Part shown: positions 1,347 to 38,450 of the stretch, one piece after another
How positions within the stretch are numbered: the first letter of the stretch is position 1
How the letters are laid out: the number at the start of each line of letters is the position of its first letter
Origin: a virus
Reading direction: 5' to 3' (one strand)
DNA length: 44,291 bases
Virus record (IMG/VR): IMGVR_UViG_3300028558_000043
Span: 1-44,291 of that record
Notes under the pieces: generated by a model
The model's database searches: none
Seen by the model: only the letters and a program-made list of their open reading frames with translations
Told to the model about the DNA's origin: nothing
Translations under genes and position numbers: made by a program

Positions 1347-2060
1347 CTATTCATCAACATATTTCCAATAATATCCACATGCATATTTTCTTCTTCCTGT
1401 ACATACATCGACTATGTGTCCGTTACCTACTTTTAATATTGCTTCAGCAATTGTTTCATATCGTGCAATGAATACATTGTCTTTCGTATATTGCTCAACT
1501 GCATGTGCCCTACCATTGTTTTTACCCGAACGTTTTAATTTTACTTCGGGTGTGTTAAAAGATTTACGTAAATTTTCTCGATGTTCTATTGTTTTCTTTT
1601 TTCCAATTAATGCATCACTATCTTTTTTACGATGTTCTGCACTCTTTTTTCCAGTATTCATTTTTGCCGCAGCACTCATTCGAGCTTTACCTTCGGGTGT
1701 ATTACATTTTTCACGTAATTCGCGACGTTGTTCTTCATTCCATTTATAACCTGATATTCCTTCACCACCTAACGTCTGATTACATGCATAATGAGTTTTT
1801 TCAGGATCATGAATAAATGTATGAAGTTCTCGTATCAAAGTCTTTTCAACTTCAAAAGCTTCGCTTTCGTCGTCAGTCTCAAATCCAACAACACGTTTCC
1901 ATTCGTATTTCTTTGCGTAACTTTGATGTTGTTTATTACGCTCTTTTCCGTTAACGCGTGTTTGATTTCCTTTTCCAACGTATCCACGAATGAATTCACC
2001 GTCTTTTTCAATGAAGTCAACGTAGACGCAAAATTTTTTCATAAGTTTTATATTAATCAT
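1347..2060 (-). CDS. GIY-YIG homing endonuclease with NUMOD motifs
   Basis: The N-terminal ~110 residues carry a GIY-YIG-type core: a VYVDF strand, then RGYVGKG with the downstream Arg, and a conserved Glu in the EVEKTLIRELH helix. Two short NUMOD3-like helical repeats follow (NTPEGKARMSAA and NTPEVKLKRSG contexts). A C-terminal NUMOD1/IENR1-like DNA-binding helix follows (about residues 188-234, ending GYYWKY). The start overlaps the stop of the upstream gene by 4 bases; Met7 is an alternative start. It is free-standing between two intact late genes, with no sign of an intron. Expected role: cuts homologous phage genomes lacking the gene so it is copied in. Confidence 0.88.
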   Translation of the reverse strand: MINIKLMKKFCVYVDFIEKDGEFIRGYVGKGNQTRVNGKERNKQHQSYAKKYEWKRVVGFETDDESEAFEVEKTLIRELHTFIHDPEKTHYACNQTLGGEGISGYKWNEEQRRELREKCNTPEGKARMSAAAKMNTGKKSAEHRKKDSDALIGKKKTIEHRENLRKSFNTPEVKLKRSGKNNGRAHAVEQYTKDNVFIARYETIAEAILKVGNGHIVDVCTGRRKYACGYYWKYVDE

Positions 2061-5085: not shown

Positions 5086-5246
5086 CAAAATTTATCTATG
5101 GGTATTGTCACAACATCATGTCTTATATGATGTATTCCACTAACAAAAAGTCCATACTTTGTACGTAAAAAACAAACTGGACGCATATGTGTTAGTATTT
5201 CAGCGTCTTTACACACTAAAAGTGCTGTTGATTTGCTAATTCTCAT
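5085..5246 (-). CDS. Small hypothetical protein (53 aa)
   Basis: An ATG at 5244-5246 opens a 53-codon frame ending in TGA at 5085-5087. The product begins MRISKSTALLV, ends TIPIDKF, and has no recognised motif. Its ATG overlaps by one base the stop of the interrupted zinc-finger gene, which supports it as the next gene of an operon. It lies downstream of the TnpB insertion and may have lost its transcription by read-through from the upstream gene. Confidence 0.55.
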   Translation of the reverse strand: MRISKSTALLVCKDAEILTHMRPVCFLRTKYGLFVSGIHHIRHDVVTIPIDKF

Positions 5247-5335
5247 CACATGACCTCAACATTGAATTTTACGTTAAACGTGTTCTCAATGAGTGGCTTG
5301 ATTTTATCATTGAAACATTTTATGTTCGAATTGAC
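5246..5335 (-). pseudogene. 3' fragment of a zinc-finger gene split by the TnpB element
   Basis: Reading from GTC at 5333-5335 to TGA at 5246-5248 gives 29 residues, containing CFNDKIKPLIE, a sequence typical of the end of small phage zinc-ribbon proteins ('..C..CF..K..P.LE'). Joining base 6617 directly to base 5335 (minus strand) continues the frame of the fragment at 6608-6835 with no shift, giving a 102-aa protein. The fragment now has no start of its own other than one supplied by the element's end. Confidence 0.7.
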
Positions 5336-5342
5336 AAGAATA

Positions 5343-5363
5343 GTCATCCCCTCGTGGGATGAC
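5343..5363 (+). repeat. Left-end hairpin of the TnpB element
   Basis: A perfect 8-bp stem GTCATCCC/GGGATGAC with the 5-base loop CTCGT, 7 bases inside the left boundary. The right end has the same structure. This is the usual subterminal recognition structure of single-strand transposing IS200/IS605 elements. Confidence 0.85.
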
Positions 5364-5430
5364 ATGAATTGTTTTTTTAAAACTAACTATTTTCAAACAT
5401 TTGTTCACTCCTGTTTTAAATTAAGTTCAA

Positions 5431-6495
5431 GTGAAGCGAACTATCAAATTCAAGCTTAAACTCTCAGAGAAAGACAGAAATTCTATCTTTGAGACAATGA
5501 GTGCTTCTGCAGAGGTGTTCAACGACCACGTTGAACACTGTTTCAAGGTTCGCTCTTGGTCAAAGCCGAAGGCTCATGAGGCTCTGTACGGCTACGAGCG
5601 AGCTCTTCACCCAAAATTTCCGTCAGCTTTGCTTCAAGCAACGCGTGACAACGCGTTGGAGAGCGTCAAGGCTTTGAAGTTCAAGTTCAAGCCTCACAAG
5701 ACGTCTTCGACGTCAACGCTAAGATACGACAAGCGAACTTTCACGATGACAAAGAATTCACTGTCACTCGCGACCGTCAACGGTCGCGTCAAATGCGAGC
5801 TAAAGTTTGCAGACTGGTGTTCTGAAGTCATGAGCAAGGGTGTTGCAAAGCTCGTTCAGCTAAAGTTCGAAAAACAAAACAATGAACTTTATGCGAACGT
5901 CGTGTTCGACGTTCCATTTAATGTTACACTGAAACAAGACGGATTAATAGTTGGCATTGACAGAGGACTGACGAACGTAGCTGTCACTTCTGAGGGAATA
6001 TTTTACAGCTCAAAGAAAGTGAGAAAGAACCAAAGAAAACACCTGTTCTTAAGAAGAACGCTCTCTGCAAAAGGCACTCGTTCCACAAGGAGATTGTTGA
6101 GAGCAATCTCAGGAAGAGAAAGGCGGTTCAGCAGAGATTTTAATCACTGTTTAAGCAAAGAATTGGCTACTGATCCAAGTGTCAAAGTCTACGTCTTGGA
6201 AGACTTGACGAACATTCGAAGAGGAAAAAAGAAGGGCAAAAAGTTCAACAAAGCCTTAAGCTCTTGGAGCTTTTGCGAGCTTGAAAACTTCTTGAAATAC
6301 AAGTGCGAAGCACTTGGCGTGCAAGTCGTCAAGGTCGACCCGAGATACACGTCGCAGACGTGCAGTGCCTGTGGGCACTGTCAGAAAGAAAACAGGAGCG
6401 GATCAAACTTCTTTTGCTTGAGCTGTGGTCACAAAGAACATGCAGACTTCAACGCTGCAAAAAACATCCGAGACAAACACGTTGTCGTTTGTTGA
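5431..6495 (+). CDS. tnpB: TnpB RNA-guided endonuclease (IS200/IS605 OrfB)
   Basis: A 354-residue TnpB with an intact split RuvC site: GIDRG (D177), VLEDL (E257) and HADFNAAKNI (D339). A zinc finger lies between the last two motifs (C311, C314, C329, C332). The N-terminus (MKRTIKFKL) is typical of the family, and the protein is slightly shorter than the common ~400 aa. It starts at GTG; an in-frame TAA lies two codons upstream, so no earlier start is possible, and there is no Shine-Dalgarno. The known activity of the family is DNA cleavage guided by an RNA made from the element's right end, at targets next to a short TAM. Here the TAM predicted from the left flank is TTGAC. All catalytic residues are present, so activity is plausible. 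Confidence 0.93.
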   Translation: MKRTIKFKLKLSEKDRNSIFETMSASAEVFNDHVEHCFKVRSWSKPKAHEALYGYERALHPKFPSALLQATRDNALESVKALKFKFKPHKTSSTSTLRYDKRTFTMTKNSLSLATVNGRVKCELKFADWCSEVMSKGVAKLVQLKFEKQNNELYANVVFDVPFNVTLKQDGLIVGIDRGLTNVAVTSEGIFYSSKKVRKNQRKHLFLRRTLSAKGTRSTRRLLRAISGRERRFSRDFNHCLSKELATDPSVKVYVLEDLTNIRRGKKKGKKFNKALSSWSFCELENFLKYKCEALGVQVVKVDPRYTSQTCSACGHCQKENRSGSNFFCLSCGHKEHADFNAAKNIRDKHVVVC

Positions 6496-6636
6496 GGCAG
6501 GGCACAGTCAATTGCCCAAACGTCACGCGATCAAACGCGTGTCGACGGTCGAAGCGTGGGTGATGCCACCCACGGGTTCGTGCCAAGGTTATCCCCTCGT
6601 GGGATGACTATTTGACGCAACAGTTCAATCCAGTGA
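6496..6636 (+). ncRNA. Predicted omegaRNA (reRNA) scaffold and guide of TnpB
   Basis: Downstream of tnpB lie a hairpin GTGGGT/ACCCAC (6556-6561/6568-6573) and the right-end hairpin (6588-6608), ending at TTGAC (6612-6616). In characterised TnpB systems the guide RNA overlaps the 3' end of tnpB and runs through the right end, and the first 16-20 flank bases act as guide. That would be GCAACAGTTCAATCCAGTGA (6617-6636). The 5' boundary is unknown and may lie within tnpB. The guide matches the uninterrupted target gene by construction. Confidence 0.6.
6588..6608 (+). repeat. Right-end hairpin of the TnpB element
   Basis: The stem GTTATCCC/GGGATGAC with loop CTCGT differs from the left-end hairpin at one base, which leaves a G:U pair in RNA. 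It lies 8 bases inside the right boundary. No T-tract follows, which argues against a terminator. Confidence 0.85.
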
Positions 6637-6835
6637 CGTACATGCTACCTTCATCATATTCGTCACAATCTGGATATGTCCAGCTTTCAATGCGAACGTC
6701 TTCTTCACGCGCAACCTTATTCCACTCTCTTGTTCTTGTAGAGTGTTGATCGTGCATTTCTACGCCGCACAAGTCACATGTGTACGAGTGAAATTCTTTG
6801 TCGACTTCAACTTTTTCAATTCGAGTAGTTTTCAT
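6608..6835 (-). pseudogene. 5' part of a zinc-finger gene truncated by the TnpB element
   Basis: Encodes 75 residues with a CDLCG zinc knuckle (C20, C23) and a Tyr/Asp/Glu-rich segment, ending GLNCCVK at a TAG made partly by the element's last bases. Codon 73 (TGC, 6617-6619) joins in frame to the fragment at 5246-5335 to give a 102-aa protein with a second Cys cluster. The truncated product may still be made. A TAAATT box lies 6 bases before the ATG. Small zinc-ribbon proteins of this type are common in phages and of unknown role. Confidence 0.72.
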
Positions 6836-6839
6836 AAAA

Positions 6840-7253
6840 TTAATTTATGCTCCCGACAATATTATGTTCACTTTTCACAACAACCCAACTCAAACGCGCT
6901 GGTGCAAAGAACGGCTGCGTGGCACCGCAGTAAGACGCACGCAACACTTTGTCGTCTGACAACTTGACGTCACAAAACCCTCTCGAATTCATCACTGCTT
7001 CAACGAGCCATTTCGTGCACCACCAAGGTGTATCATACAATCCTGAACCAGTGTCACCACGATGCAACGTGATTGAACCATGAGACTGTTCAGTACGTGA
7101 GCAAGCGCGCATTTCACTATCTGGAATTGTGACATTGTCGCGGTGATACACAACACAACGTGCACGTTGTCGTTCATGAACAGGCTGTGTAATGCGAACG
7201 TATGCTGGCGCGCATGAAAATAGGAGAAAAAGAAACGCACACTTTTTCAACAT
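6840..7253 (-). CDS. Secreted or lipoprotein-like Cys-rich protein (137 aa)
   Basis: The N-terminus MLKKCAFLFLLFSCAP is a signal sequence; LFSC (Cys14) could serve as a lipobox. The mature part has six further Cys residues and a 'GSGLYDTPWWCTKW' segment, suggesting a disulfide-bonded domain outside the cytoplasm. I recognise no family. A TAGAAT box lies exactly 6 bases upstream of the ATG with no Shine-Dalgarno, fitting the leaderless pattern seen elsewhere here. It lies between a virion gene and the interrupted zinc-finger gene. Confidence 0.7.
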   Translation of the reverse strand: MLKKCAFLFLLFSCAPAYVRITQPVHERQRARCVVYHRDNVTIPDSEMRACSRTEQSHGSITLHRGDTGSGLYDTPWWCTKWLVEAVMNSRGFCDVKLSDDKVLRASYCGATQPFFAPARLSWVVVKSEHNIVGSIN

Positions 7254-7312
7254 ACGCGCATTCTACCACATTGCACACAAATTTACTTCGCTTCAATAAT
7301 TATACTCTGATT

Positions 7313-8503
7313 TCAATAATCGATGCGAAGTCTAAGCGTTAAATCGCGCTCGCTAGATTTTTCTATGGGCCTCGATACCTTGCCAATAGCGAGCAAATTA
7401 TCATTGCTGTCCAGCAGTCCCACACTTGTGATGAACGTGAACGAGCTTTCAACGTCTTCCTGGCCCGGAGTAATCACGACTATCCTCGACGTGTCGTCAG
7501 TGAAAGTCACGTTTGAGCTATAGTTGAATTCGTCAGCAGCCGCCCTGCAAAATATCAACGATGAATTAATGTTAGTCACGTTTTGGAACGTGATTTCAGT
7601 GTTGCTTCCACTGCCCATTCTGCAACCTGCGACGTGATCTATGATGTTGTCTATGCTTGCAGACACAACAAAGTCTGGAATGAACTTTGACTTGCCCGCA
7701 GTTTCAGTTCCTGCTGAACCCAGCACCATTTGCCCAGTGGGCGTGACTGCGTCTATTGTGCCGTTTACATACTGACTTGCGCTAGTTATTTTTGCCAAGT
7801 CAAGCACAAGTATGCCTCTGTCGTAGAACATCAAGCCAACGCCCTTCGACGTGTTTGCACTGTCAATCACGTTTCCAACTTCGCCACCAAAAGCAGTGAG
7901 CTTATTAGTTGCCGCACCCATGTCGGTGTATATTGCTGATCCTGAAAATGAATTCGTTTGTAGGTTTGGAATTGCGACTGACGCAGTTTGATAAAACCTC
8001 ATTGCAAGAGTTTCACGCTTTATCTTGTCTCGCGCAAAGAGGCGTTTGAAGGCAATGAACACCGCACAGTCAATTTGATCTCCCGCCGAAGTGCTGTCGA
8101 ACGGAGACGAAAATGCCTGCGTTGCGTCGCCAAGCAAAGACTGCGCGAACTGCCTGTACACGTCCATCTTTTCACGCATCATCAACGAAGACGATGGAAA
8201 CAATTCTTTACCCGCACTGTCGACCGCGGTTTGACTTGTTAAGACGGTTGAACCACCCGGCAACAAACCAAACGTCATGTCCATGATTGCATTAGAAGTC
8301 TGAAGCGTGAAGTCACTGTCGTAGACTGTTTGAAAGAGGCTGGAGGTTACACCAATTGAGCTGACGGTACCTGTCACAAAAGACTGAAATTTTCTCCGAG
8401 AAACTGACTGACTTACGTCTTCTTGCAAGACGTCAACAAGCTGTGACAAGAAAGATCTTGAAGATTTGATATCTGCGCTGGTTAATTCTTTAAAAATTGC
8501 CGT
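7313..8503 (-). CDS. Virion structural protein, probable ACG start (396 aa)
   Basis: The product (FKELTSADIK near the N-terminus; FTFITSVGLLDSND and IGKVSRPIEK near the C-terminus) resembles a conserved structural protein of marine T4-like phages. The frame is open upstream of the first conventional start (TTG, 8447-8449), which has no ribosome binding site. A strong GGAGG (8512-8516) lies 8 bases before an in-frame ACG (8501-8503), and starting there gives the typical N-terminus M-AIFKELTSADI. The GGAGG is inside the last codons of the upstream endonuclease gene, whose TAA is at 8508-8510, so coupling may help. No other in-frame ATG or GTG lies between the upstream stop and 8449. Confidence 0.75.
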   Translation of the reverse strand, partial: TAIFKELTSADIKSSRSFLSQLVDVLQEDVSQSVSRRKFQSFVTGTVSSIGVTSSLFQTVYDSDFTLQTSNAIMDMTFGLLPGGSTVLTSQTAVDSAGKELFPSSSLMMREKMDVYRQFAQSLLGDATQAFSSPFDSTSAGDQIDCAVFIAFKRLFARDKIKRETLAMRFYQTASVAIPNLQTNSFSGSAIYTDMGAATNKLTAFGGEVGNVIDSANTSKGVGLMFYDRGILVLDLAKITSASQYVNGTIDAVTPTGQMVLGSAGTETAGKSKFIPDFVVSASIDNIIDHVAGCRMGSGSNTEITFQNVTNINSSLIFCRAAADEFNYSSNVTFTDDTSRIVVITPGQEDVESSFTFITSVGLLDSNDNLLAIGKVSRPIEKSSERDLTLRLRIDY

Positions 8504-8507
8504 TGGT

Positions 8508-9398
8508 TTATCCTCCGAGCGTTGCAGTTACGCAAGCCCAATTTCCTGTTTTTGAACACTCATTTATTTGTAAATCCGTAAATCTAATTAGTCTTAAACC
8601 CGCGTTTTTAAACCATTCGTCTTTTTTTCTATCGCGATCATATTGCAACCGTTTATTAGGATGTAATTCGTCATATGTTTTGTTTAACCCATGCCAAAAT
8701 ACACCATCAAGTTCAACATAAGTATCAATACTTGTCACATATGCGTCTATTAACCACGGCTTTTTTGAATTATCATGGAAAATTTCTATTTGTTTTTTAA
8801 CTTGTCCATAATTCTCTTCAAGAAAGCCTAATAATAATTTTTCTGGTTTTGATAAACTATTTCCTTGTGAAATTTGCACAAGTGAACGATATCCTTTTGC
8901 ACCAAAAATACTATAATCTTCGTTTGAAGATCTAAATGGCGAATCACCTACAAACGTATTTGGAATTCCATATCTTTCAAGATACGTTTGTTTCTTTTTC
9001 TCTTTAACGTCTTCTGCCCTTGAAGGGTGTTCTGCACCGTGATTTTCCAACATTGTTTTACGAAACTTTGCAGATATTTCTTCGTTAAAATGAATTGGTG
9101 TTGATGTACCAAAACGTTCAATTCGAGTTGCAATCATTTTTTCAGCCGCACCAATAACTTGACCACCAAATTCAACACCATGACGTTCTAAATTTACTTG
9201 TTTTACTTTTTGTAAAAGTTTTCCATGAGAACGTGAAGCTTTTCTACATTCTTTTGAACAAAAATTTAACATGCCTCGTTGTGTTCCATGTTTAAATTCT
9301 TTATTACATTCATCACATTGAAACACATCAACGTTACGAGTTTGTTCATGTCCCCATCGTTTATTAATAAAAATTTCTTCTTCAACTCGCAAAAACAT
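8508..9398 (-). CDS. Vsr-like (EDxHD-type) homing endonuclease with zinc ribbon
   Basis: Domains in order: an N-terminal zinc ribbon (C28, C31, C47, C51); helical repeats with the recurring 'ERxG...' signature (ERHGVEF, ERFGTST, ENHGAEH, ERYGIPN) that look like DNA-contact modules; and a C-terminal nuclease (E186, D218, YVELDGVFWHG with D231 and H236, then YDRDRKKD). The DGxFWHG motif is that of very-short-patch-repair nucleases and of the related EDxHD homing endonucleases (I-Bth0305I type). It sits between two intact late genes. Its last codons contain the ribosome binding site of the downstream virion gene, so insertion may have changed that gene's start context. Confidence 0.85.
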   Translation of the reverse strand: MFLRVEEEIFINKRWGHEQTRNVDVFQCDECNKEFKHGTQRGMLNFCSKECRKASRSHGKLLQKVKQVNLERHGVEFGGQVIGAAEKMIATRIERFGTSTPIHFNEEISAKFRKTMLENHGAEHPSRAEDVKEKKKQTYLERYGIPNTFVGDSPFRSSNEDYSIFGAKGYRSLVQISQGNSLSKPEKLLLGFLEENYGQVKKQIEIFHDNSKKPWLIDAYVTSIDTYVELDGVFWHGLNKTYDELHPNKRLQYDRDRKKDEWFKNAGLRLIRFTDLQINECSKTGNWACVTATLGG

Positions 9399-9481: not shown

Positions 9482-10369
9482 TCAAAGTGATGATCTGTAA
9501 GTCAAGATAATTTTATAAATATCTTCCACACTGTTTCCACGCACAAGTCGCTTGTTATTTTCCTTGAACCACATGACCTGTTCTATGTCTCGCATGTATG
9601 TTGTGTAAATGACACTGTCGCGCTTGTGTTCAAATTTTTTAATATCTTCAATTGGTCTGTCTAATCCATGCCAATATACACCATCAAGTTGTATGTATAA
9701 GTCAATTGTTTTGATATAAAAATCTATCGCCCAGCCATTCACTTTTGTTTGTCGCTCAACATTATCGTTACCAAATTTTTCACACAATAATTCATATAAC
9801 TTGTTTTCTGGACCTGACTTCTTAAACGTGCCATTTCTTTTCATTGTATCATGCGATTTCTGAGCTATTTCATGATAATCAATTTTTGATTTTACTTCTT
9901 CTGCTTGCATTGCTACAGGAACGCCATATTTTTCTAAACACGTGTTTACGCGCTTTTGATTAATTTCATTACCATTTTCTCTACAAACGGTTCGATGTGC
10001 TTCAATCGTTGATTGAAGTTTCAATACATTTGATACACCATAATTTTTTAGCGTTGTTACAACAATTTTTTGTTTTATGTCATCAAGTGTTGCGAGTTTA
10101 CCAAAAGGCACTCCATATCGTTCAATGTACGTTTGTTCAGCTTTTTCACGTGTTTCAGGTGTAAATAAGTGATGTGGATATATTATCCCACCGCGCTTTG
10201 TTGCATCATATTTGCATTGTTTTGAACAAAATGATATTTGTACACCTACATGACATTTTGAATATTTTCGTTTGTATTCGATACCACATTGATCACACAC
10301 AAATACACTTACCCGTTTTCCAACAACGGGACGATAAACAGATGGCACAACTTCTGTACGAACGTACAT
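9482..10369 (-). CDS. Second Vsr-like homing endonuclease with zinc ribbon
   Basis: A 295-aa homologue of the neighbouring 8508-9398 protein: N-terminal zinc ribbon (C25, C28, C48, C52), repeated 'ERYGVPF', 'KNYGVSN', 'EKYGVPV' modules, a conserved Glu in GPENKL, and the nuclease core IDLYIQLDGVYWHGL. The two are clearly diverged in sequence, so they are not a recent tandem copy. No Shine-Dalgarno is visible. It is followed by a strong terminator (9436-9466). As a free-standing endonuclease it would promote its own spread into related phages lacking it. Two related enzymes side by side suggest this junction is a preferred insertion site. Confidence 0.85.
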   Translation of the reverse strand: MYVRTEVVPSVYRPVVGKRVSVFVCDQCGIEYKRKYSKCHVGVQISFCSKQCKYDATKRGGIIYPHHLFTPETREKAEQTYIERYGVPFGKLATLDDIKQKIVVTTLKNYGVSNVLKLQSTIEAHRTVCRENGNEINQKRVNTCLEKYGVPVAMQAEEVKSKIDYHEIAQKSHDTMKRNGTFKKSGPENKLYELLCEKFGNDNVERQTKVNGWAIDFYIKTIDLYIQLDGVYWHGLDRPIEDIKKFEHKRDSVIYTTYMRDIEQVMWFKENNKRLVRGNSVEDIYKIILTYRSSL

Positions 10370-11124: not shown

Positions 11125-11979
11125 TTAGCTCGACAAACGTTTTTGCACTTCTGAAATAAGTAATCCCATCAAAAAAATTTGTTTCTTTTTGACATTCGCT
11201 ATATTTCCACGTGTCAAACTTGTAGCAATCACGGCGTCATTGATTGAAAAATACATTACACAACACTCACCCTCAACATCAAAACCAAACACAGGCTTCT
11301 TTCGTAATAATCTGTTATGCCAATCGTTCAAATGTTGTTGCTCAGTCCACGATTTTCCAAGATTTGGTCCAGGATGTTCATCATAATATTTTCTAACACC
11401 GACTCCAATATTTTCTTTATGTTCTTCTGATAAGAACGTTCCAGAACGTGCAATTGAAATATTTCGCTTTGTCTCCTCACTTAACGGACCCGTTCGTCCA
11501 AAAGCCTTCCCGTAGAAAAAGTGATCCTTTCCACACTTTCTTCGAGACCTCATGTACTCACCATGACCATTATCATAATGTATCTTTGCGGCATGCGATA
11601 TCAATGCAATCGTTGATGGCTTCATATTTTCACGCTTGTGAAACTCACTCATTAATTGTCGCGTTGTATCAGATACATTGTGACCAGGCGTTCCTTCACC
11701 TCCAGACGTCAAATTGTATCCAATTGTGTGATCCATCGTATTGAACTTTGCTATCCAAAACTTCTCCGCCTCAACCATTTCTTCAAACGTTGCACACTCC
11801 TGCAACACGCTCGGAACAAACGCTTCCCTTCCATACTTTGCGATTGCACGCAAAATGTACATACAACTGTCATGACTTGCATTGCCAAAATGTCCTGTAA
11901 CACGATATTCAAGCGTCTTTGTCGTCATTCCGACGTATTTTTTCCCATTGACGGTGTTCGTCAGACAGTAAATTATCAT
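11125..11979 (-). CDS. GIY-YIG homing endonuclease (284 aa)
   Basis: A canonical GIY-YIG module: IYCLTN, KKYVGMT, an Arg and His further on (YRVTGHFG), and the conserved Glu in EAEKFWIAKF, followed by YNLTSGGEG. A NUMOD3-type segment follows (LSEETKRNISIARSG, LSEEHKENI) and a C-terminal NUMOD1-like DNA-binding helix-turn-helix (VFGFDVEGE...FSINDAV). I take the ATG at 11977-11979 rather than the TTG one codon before. Free-standing between two virion genes (23 and 40 base gaps). Confidence 0.9.
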   Translation of the reverse strand: MIIYCLTNTVNGKKYVGMTTKTLEYRVTGHFGNASHDSCMYILRAIAKYGREAFVPSVLQECATFEEMVEAEKFWIAKFNTMDHTIGYNLTSGGEGTPGHNVSDTTRQLMSEFHKRENMKPSTIALISHAAKIHYDNGHGEYMRSRRKCGKDHFFYGKAFGRTGPLSEETKRNISIARSGTFLSEEHKENIGVGVRKYYDEHPGPNLGKSWTEQQHLNDWHNRLLRKKPVFGFDVEGECCVMYFSINDAVIATSLTRGNIANVKKKQIFLMGLLISEVQKRLSS

Positions 11980-12019
11980 CAAATTATTATTAATCCACTC
12001 TCAGTTCTGTGTACAACTC

Positions 12020-32880: not shown

Positions 32881-33198
32881 TCAGTCGACTGCTTGTGACC
32901 ACAAGGGGATATCTATTCTTGCGAAAGAGAGAACATAAAACATCATTTGTAACGCATAACACATGCTATAATGTTGACGTCCCGTTTCGTAAACGTCACA
33001 CAATAAAATATGTGCAACGACATGTTCCCTAATCGTGAGATACACGAGATTTTCTGGATCTTTCAAAGATCCGCCAATTGATTTACACTTTGGAATTATA
33101 TGATGGCATTCATATCCACGTGTACGTTTTTTGGGATTAAGTTTTTTCGCATTTTCTATTAATGCATTGTATTGTGTAATTGCGTCTTCGTGTAACAT
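32881..33198 (-). CDS. HNH homing endonuclease, possibly truncated (105 aa)
   Basis: The HNH core is clear: ECHHIIPKC (H32-H33), GGSLKDPENLVYLT (N50) and REHVVAHILL (H59, H63). Such free-standing phage HNH enzymes (MobA-like and others) usually run longer and end in DNA-binding repeats. Here the frame stops soon after the core at WSQAVD. The +1 frame from 32888 to 32763 continues open for 41 codons, starting STEERAKKGRATLL, which looks like a natural continuation, so the C-terminus may have been lost by a frameshift. No ribosome binding site is visible before the ATG. Confidence 0.78.
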   Translation of the reverse strand: MLHEDAITQYNALIENAKKLNPKKRTRGYECHHIIPKCKSIGGSLKDPENLVYLTIREHVVAHILLCDVYETGRQHYSMCYALQMMFYVLSFARIDIPLWSQAVD

Positions 33199-38345: not shown

Positions 38346-38450
38346 ATGTTCCTGTCGAAAAAAGATGATAAACAATTTTTAATTGGTGCGATAGTGGTTT
38401 TGTGCATTTGGTGCGCAATGGGATTTATCATGTATACGGTAGCGTTTTGA
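38346..38450 (+). CDS. Small single-span membrane protein (34 aa)
   Basis: ATG 38346-38348 follows the previous TAA by one base. The product is MFLSKKDDKQ followed by a membrane helix (FLIGAIVVLCIWCAMGFIMY, residues 11-30). Basic residues on the N-side suggest the N-terminus is inside. Role unknown. Confidence 0.58.
   Translation: MFLSKKDDKQFLIGAIVVLCIWCAMGFIMYTVAF

What the first reader, a model, noticed from the sequence alone, without database searches (positions are those of the whole stretch)
5246..6835. TnpB element precisely interrupts a zinc-finger gene and defines its own TAM and guide
Seen: TTGAC occurs at both boundaries (5331-5335 and 6612-6616), with matching hairpins just inside. 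Deleting 5336-6616 joins codon 73 of the minus-strand gene at 6617-6835 to GTC at 5333-5335 with no frame change, giving a continuous 102-aa zinc-finger protein. That agreement is unlikely by chance and fixes the element ends to the base. Known for the family: TnpB uses the left-flank motif as TAM and the right flank as guide. Inference: TnpB here, with TAM TTGAC and guide from 6617, would cut related phages carrying the intact gene, so the element behaves as an RNA-guided homing element within a virion operon.
Basis: partly seen in the sequence, partly recalled or inferred. Interest (0 to 1): 0.85.

Follow-up and report, generated by a model that had tools for sequence, protein, structure and literature searches.

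The report
Phage TnpB transposon, ends and TAM corrected
An ordinary kind of jumping gene carrying an RNA-guided DNA-cutting enzyme (TnpB) has landed inside a small zinc-finger gene of an uncultured phage; comparison with relatives shows that its left end and targeting motif are not the ones first proposed, and that it belongs to a small family so far seen only in phages.

Summary
A relative with the site empty (L003) and other copies of the element place its ends at 5324-6616 (1,293 nt), 12 nt further left than proposed. The left flank, hence the predicted TAM, is TTTAT (5319-5323), not TTGAC. TTGAC at 5331-5335 is an internal, conserved part of the left end; TTGAC at 6612-6616 is the right cleavage site. 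Nearly all ends obey the IS608 guide/cleavage pairing rule, and a sister subfamily covaries (TTTAC with AAAG). The element is a TnpA-less IS200/IS605 (IS1341-type) element. A Y1 TnpA with matching ends occurs in a related phage contig, and a complete tnpA+tnpB relative in a 298-kb phage. TnpB's catalytic residues are intact and an omega-RNA-like right end has covariation support. Cutting of related phages is not supported: the only intact allele found has an altered TAM and 4 guide mismatches. New member of a known kind.

The parts
5319..5323 (+). TTTAT target motif / predicted TAM; left cleavage site CL = TTAT (5320-5323)
   Evidence: Conserved left flank of the copies; present in two window empty sites of other copies
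5324..6616 (+). the element, 1,293 nt, IS200/IS605 superfamily, TnpA-less (IS1341-type)
   Evidence: Empty-site comparison with L003 and alignment with other copies
5331..5335 (+).
   Evidence: Conserved internally in TTTAT-type left ends
5339..5342 (+). left guide sequence GL = AATA at the foot of the LE hairpin
   Evidence: IS608 pairing rule with CL TTAT met 3/3; with TGAC only 1/3 (rule from PMC5934647)
5343..5363 (+). left-end subterminal hairpin GTCATCCC-CTCGT-GGGATGAC
5431..6495 (+). tnpB, 354 aa, GTG start; RuvC D177/E257/D339 and zinc cysteines C311/C314/C329/C332 present
   Evidence: NCBIfam NF040570 guided_TnpB 186 bits against cut-off 100; Pfam TNB domain 1.8e-23; alignment A4
6497..6616 (+). 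predicted omega-RNA scaffold (5' limit unknown)
   Evidence: Fold z = -3.47; helix 3 has 5 pairs changed on both sides across copies; no Rfam match
6584..6587 (+). right guide sequence GR = CAAG at the foot of the RE hairpin
   Evidence: Rule with CR TGAC met 3/3
6588..6608 (+). right-end subterminal hairpin
6612..6616 (+). TTGAC: right-end terminus, right cleavage site CR
   Evidence: Right ends of this type end in TATTTGAC and then diverge; same terminus in a 298-kb phage relative
6617..6636 (+). flank read as predicted guide GCAACAGTTCAATCCAGTGA
   Evidence: Starts at the element's right boundary; guide use inferred from the known family (PMC8612924)
6608..6835 (-). interrupted zinc-ribbon gene, 5' part (host codons 6617-6835; now a 75-aa ORF ending CCVK*)
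   Evidence: intact 100-aa homologue in L003 1964-2266
5246..5323 (-). 3' part of the interrupted gene (IKCFNDKIKPLIENTFNVKFNVEVM*)
32899..32934 (-). left-end remnant of the TnpA-type element (TTTAT|GTTCTCTCTTTCGCAAGAATAGATATCCCC) inside an HNH-like ORF
   Evidence: Matches the LE of the L013 TnpA-bearing element

Best explanation
The feature is a non-autonomous (TnpA-less, IS1341-type) IS200/IS605-superfamily element of 1,293 nt (5324-6616), inserted 3' of TTTAT without target duplication into a dispensable zinc-ribbon gene of an uncultured phage. Shown by sequence: its ends, its target motif, its relation to other copies, intact TnpB catalytic residues, and a right-end RNA fold with covariation support. 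Inferred: (1) it was inserted as single-stranded DNA by a Y1 TnpA acting in trans, such as the one found inside an element with matching ends in a related phage contig (L013); (2) the hairpins, GL AATA and GR CAAG position the cleavage sites TTAT| and TGAC| as in IS608; (3) TnpB with an omega-RNA ending in GCAACAGTTCAATCC... cuts any copy where excision has restored TTTTAT|GCAACAG..., so repair copies the element back. Its main role would be retention. Spread into intact alleles of relatives would need the same TAM and guide match, which the one relative found lacks. The confidence given is for the anatomy and classification; I put the inferred working mechanism (steps 1-3 together) at about 0.7.
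For: Empty site: window homology to L003 meets at one base, and the corrected join restores the CxxC zinc pair. Left flanks: the left ends found by hairpin search alone, with no flank requirement, are all preceded by TTTAT or TTTAC; TTTAY has a background frequency of 0.0042 per position. Two miniature copies in L010 have empty counterparts in the window itself: GAGTTTAT|TGTCTCTGCA and ATTTAT|CATGTATACGG. Guide rule: 10 of 11 left ends and all 9 right ends other than single-hairpin scars satisfy the three IS608 pairs, and a TTTAC subfamily covaries (GL AAAG; CR TCAG with GR GATC) (rule in PMC5934647). Transposase: Y1_Tnp 1.4e-34 in the L013 contig, inside an element with the same target and right end. 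A complete divergent tnpA/tnpB relative lies in a 298-kb phage; its TnpB is 52% identical, with TTTAT and TATTTGAC termini. TnpB membership. Omega-RNA. Mobility: five distinct right flanks in sample 3300049719 (L010, L011, L012, L013, L015), with contigs ending inside the element. Function of TnpB in the family: PMC8612924.
Against: No TnpA lies in the window record, which may be a fragment, so mobilisation in trans is inferred. The L003 homologue is only 63-66% identical at protein level and its site reads TCTAT rather than TTTAT. No RNA or nuclease data exist. The omega-RNA covariation rests largely on one divergent row (L013 TnpA element), and helix 1 is not supported (33% of cells paired). 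PMC5934647 as read here states the A16/T-3 and A17/T-4 pairs; the fourth-position pair is from my own knowledge.
Confidence: 0.9

Rival explanations
1. One reading: element 5336-6616, TAM TTGAC, 102-aa protein when joined.
For: TTGAC at both boundaries and an in-frame join.
Against: Empty-site relative lacks the 12 nt; the join breaks CxxC; GTTCGA..TTGAC is conserved inside other left ends while the flanks outside TTTAT differ; GL AATA fits TTAT 3/3 but TGAC only 1/3.
Confidence: 0.03
2. A phage-domesticated, immobile RNA-guided homing nuclease: TnpB spreads the element between co-infecting phages by cutting intact alleles, with no TnpA transposition in recent time.
For: Many phages carry homing nucleases, and this window has several homing-type ORFs; no TnpA in the window record; homing model in PMC8612924.
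Against: The same ends sit at many unrelated sites, which homing alone cannot produce; a Y1 TnpA with matching ends exists; the only intact allele found is a poor target.
Confidence: 0.1
3. A dead relic: TnpB or its RNA no longer works and the insertion is neutral debris.
For: Scar-like single-hairpin copies and truncated relatives are common; no expression data.
Against: Full-length TnpB frame with all invariant catalytic and zinc residues; near-identical LE/RE on many copies.
Confidence: 0.12
4. A TldR-type nuclease-dead TnpB used as a repressor.
For: TnpB-like repressors are known in phages (own knowledge).
Against: D177, E257 and D339 are present and invariant; the element retains both transposon ends.
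Confidence: 0.02

Closest known systems
IS608 / IS605 (Helicobacter pylori) and ISDra2 (Deinococcus), IS200/IS605 family
   Same: Subterminal hairpins with guide tetranucleotides at their 5' foot; insertion 3' of a short T-rich target without duplication; TnpB next to a structured right end; same GL/CL and GR/CR pairing pattern (PMC5934647, PMC8612924).
   Different: No tnpA in this copy; target TTTAT instead of TTAC or TTGAT; a 19-22 nt linker outside the left hairpin; found only in phage contigs in the searches made here.
IS1341-type solo-tnpB elements, e.g. Haloquadratum ISHwa23 and PATEs (PMC3119063); Sulfolobus solo-tnpB elements with TTTAT (PMC10640517)
   Same: TnpB only, ends like autonomous relatives; about 50-nt single-palindrome derivatives by deletion between the two hairpins; TTTAT motif in the Sulfolobus solo-tnpB set.
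   Different: Hosts are archaea there, a phage here; relatedness of the sequences themselves was not tested.
tnpA/tnpB element in phage contig IMGVR_3300009181_000033 (L074)
   Same: TnpB 52% identical; RE CAAG-hairpin-TATTTGAC; left flank TTTAT.
   Different: Carries its own TnpA, divergently transcribed; the hairpin stems have different sequences.

Membership tests
IS200/IS605 superfamily | Subterminal hairpins at both ends | tested here: met
IS200/IS605 superfamily | Insertion 3' of a fixed short target with no target duplication | tested here: met
IS200/IS605 superfamily | Guide sequences matching left and right cleavage sites | tested here: met
   rule from PMC5934647
IS200/IS605 superfamily | Y1 TnpA encoded in the element (autonomous members) | tested here: not met
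   None in the window record; present in relatives with matching ends. So it is a non-autonomous IS1341-type member, not an autonomous one.
TnpB (RNA-guided endonuclease) | Family profile score, RuvC D/E/D and zinc ribbon | tested here: met
TnpB (RNA-guided endonuclease) | Omega-RNA from the right end with guide from the flank | tested here: inconclusive
   Fold and covariation support a structured RNA; no RNA data
TnpB (RNA-guided endonuclease) | TAM-dependent RNA-guided cleavage | not testable with these tools
   Needs biochemistry
RNA-guided homing element cutting related phages | Intact allele in relatives with TAM plus guide match | tested here: not met
   The only intact allele found, L003, has TCTAT and 4 mismatches in the first 13 positions; unsampled relatives remain open
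TldR (nuclease-dead TnpB repressor) | Degenerate RuvC triad | tested here: not met
IStron (intron plus TnpB) | Group I/II intron inside the element | tested here: not met
   No Rfam match in 5200-6900 at E up to 1

The most novel reading that the evidence does not exclude
A phage-restricted, multi-copy transposon network in which genes are split between copies: TnpB-only elements (window), a TnpA element with only a TnpB remnant (L013), and a 103-nt TnpB-less miniature that keeps the conserved omega-RNA stem (L010:10158-10056) and could supply new guides in trans to a shared TnpB, so that TnpB protects or drives many insertions, including its own miniatures, across co-infecting phages.
Probability: 0.12. 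Interest if true: 0.6.

Novelty: new member of a known kind. Interest (0 to 1): 0.33.

Why it matters
It corrects the predicted TAM (TTTAT, not TTGAC) on which any cleavage or TAM test would depend. It also gives a natural covariation series (TTTAT with AATA, TTTAC with AAAG, TGAC with CAAG, TCAG with GATC) supporting the IS608 guide-pairing rule in phage-borne elements, and documents a small TnpB transposon family whose end hairpin was found in phage contigs but not among 84,980 bacterial and archaeal species genomes. Methodologically, it shows that an in-frame join is weak evidence for element ends when alternative solutions differ by a multiple of three.

Tried and rejected
Searched deposited phages for the joined zinc-finger protein and for the neighbouring 834-aa protein: no match. 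Searched GTDB genomes for the element hairpin: none; a hairpin-specific pattern cannot exclude distant cellular relatives. Rfam: none. A first hairpin listing over L073-L076 with a loose stem test produced only noise; ends were then read by eye. L029 was fetched as a possible further empty site but lacks the zinc-finger gene. Considered and rejected: TTGAC as a 5-nt target duplication (the left copy is inside the element); IStron; TldR. Structure prediction was not run, because profile scores and residue conservation already settle TnpB membership.

Full report
What was checked. The window is a 44,291-base virus record. The finding's pieces are in the sequence: TTGAC at 5331-5335 and 6612-6616, near-identical hairpins at 5343-5363 and 6588-6608, a 354-aa TnpB ORF at 5431-6495, and an open 102-aa frame if 5336-6616 is removed. 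TnpB identity is firm: NCBIfam guided_TnpB 186 bits against a cut-off of 100, and a Pfam TNB domain at 1.8e-23.

The empty site. A search of viral contigs for the zinc-finger protein gave two loci. L002 is a nearly identical carrier (99.9%). L003 has the same gene order and an uninterrupted 100-aa homologue. blastn of the window against L003 matches 5253-5324 and 6617-8545, and the two blocks meet at L003:2188. The insert is therefore 5324-6616 (or 5325-6617, one shared G). L003 reads TGTTGC-ATAGAT-TGTTTT (CCIDCF).

Other copies. A scan for the hairpin found ten stretches in viral contigs, and two further scans for LE- and RE-specific strings added L030 and L031. Left ends found by hairpin alone are all preceded by TTTAT or TTTAC. 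Aligned copies of the window's type read TTTAT|GTTCGA(GATC)TTGACAAGAATA-hairpin-ATGAATTG on the left and GTGCCAAG-hairpin-TATTTGAC|variable flank on the right. So TTGAC at 5331-5335 lies inside the left end, and TTGAC at 6612-6616 is the right terminus. Two L010 miniatures have empty counterparts in the window: GAGTTTAT|TGTCTCTGCA near 34.4 kb and ATTTAT|CATGTATACGG at 38429. A further homologous pair, L013 against L006, has ATTAT at the empty site.

Guide rule. In IS608 the cleavage sites TTAC (left) and TCAA (right) pair with guide tetranucleotides AAAG and GAAT at the 5' foot of the hairpins (PMC5934647; the fourth-position pair is from my own knowledge). Here CL TTAT pairs with GL AATA, and CR TGAC with GR CAAG, three of three in each case. 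Ten of eleven left ends and nine right ends follow it; the exceptions are the left end of one degenerate miniature and the right side of the two single-hairpin scars. A sister subfamily (L006, L009) has TTTAC with AAAG, and TCAG with GATC. This covariation independently marks TTTAT as the target and rejects TTGAC, which fits GL AATA in only one of three positions.

Source of movement. No Y1 transposase lies in the window record, but one (1.4e-34) lies in the L013 contig, inside an element with the same target, GL, GR, CR and right hairpin, next to a TnpB C-terminal remnant. The window itself holds a left-end remnant of that TnpA type at 32934. A complete tnpA/tnpB element in a 298-kb phage has TnpB 52% identical to the window's and TnpA 68% identical to L013's, with TTTAT and TATTTGAC termini. 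Mobilisation in trans is an inference from these facts.

TnpB and its RNA. D177, E257, D339 and the four zinc cysteines are invariant across four relatives. The right end folds better than shuffles (z -3.47). Helix 3 shows five pairs with changes on both sides; the whole structure exceeds all shuffles in the number of such pairs and the slid controls, but much of this comes from one divergent row. By established knowledge of the family (PMC8612924) the TAM equals the TnpA target, so the predicted TAM is TTTAT and the guide begins at 6617. TTTAT has been described for solo-tnpB elements in Sulfolobus (PMC10640517).

Homing claim. The predicted target of the present guide is the donor joint TTTTAT|GCAACAGTTCAATCC. 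The only intact allele found, L003, has TCTAT and differs at positions 7, 10, 12 and 13. L029, a close relative, lacks the gene. Cutting of related phages is thus unproven and, for the one allele known, unlikely. Retention after excision is the better-supported role.

Multiplicity and scars. Five different right flanks occur in sample 3300049719 and several contigs end inside the element, as expected for a repeated sequence, though these contigs may come from more than one phage. Single-hairpin copies of 48 and 51 nt (L009, L010) match what deletion between the two hairpins would leave, as reported for Haloquadratum PATEs and ISHwa23 (PMC3119063).

Verdict. A non-autonomous IS200/IS605 (IS1341-type) TnpB element with corrected ends and TAM. 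It is a new member of a known kind; its value lies in the correction, the covariation series, and the phage-only distribution in the searches made here.

Noticed in passing
window 32899-32934 (-): Left-end remnant of the TnpA-type element within an HNH-like ORF (32881-33198), preceded by TTTAT.
   Followed up: partly
L010:10158-10056 (-): 103-nt TnpB-less miniature that keeps the conserved omega-RNA helix 3 and the terminal TTTGAC; could be a guide-only element.
   Followed up: partly
L006:11070-12134 (-) and L009:1652 (-): Sister TnpB subfamily with target TTTAC, GL AAAG, CR TCAG; the L009 copy has lost the C-terminal part of TnpB.
   Followed up: partly
L009:5067-5114: Single-hairpin scar whose loop is inverted (ACGAG instead of CTCGT).
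   Followed up: no
window 1347-2060, 8508-9398, 9482-10369, 11125-11982 (-): Several homing-type ORFs: one scores as GIY-YIG, two as DUF7487; 1347-2060 looks GIY-YIG-like by eye but had no Pfam match.
   Followed up: no
L021 (G001:9880-10104): TnpB-like fragment read with two in-frame TGA stops; decayed copy or other cause.
   Followed up: no
L029:6794-6871: Close relative lacks the zinc-ribbon gene between the 155-aa and 834-aa genes, so the gene is dispensable.
   Followed up: yes
L005:3999-4184: Contig end carrying a mid-TnpB fragment (84% identical) fused to unrelated upstream sequence; truncated copy or chimera.
   Followed up: no
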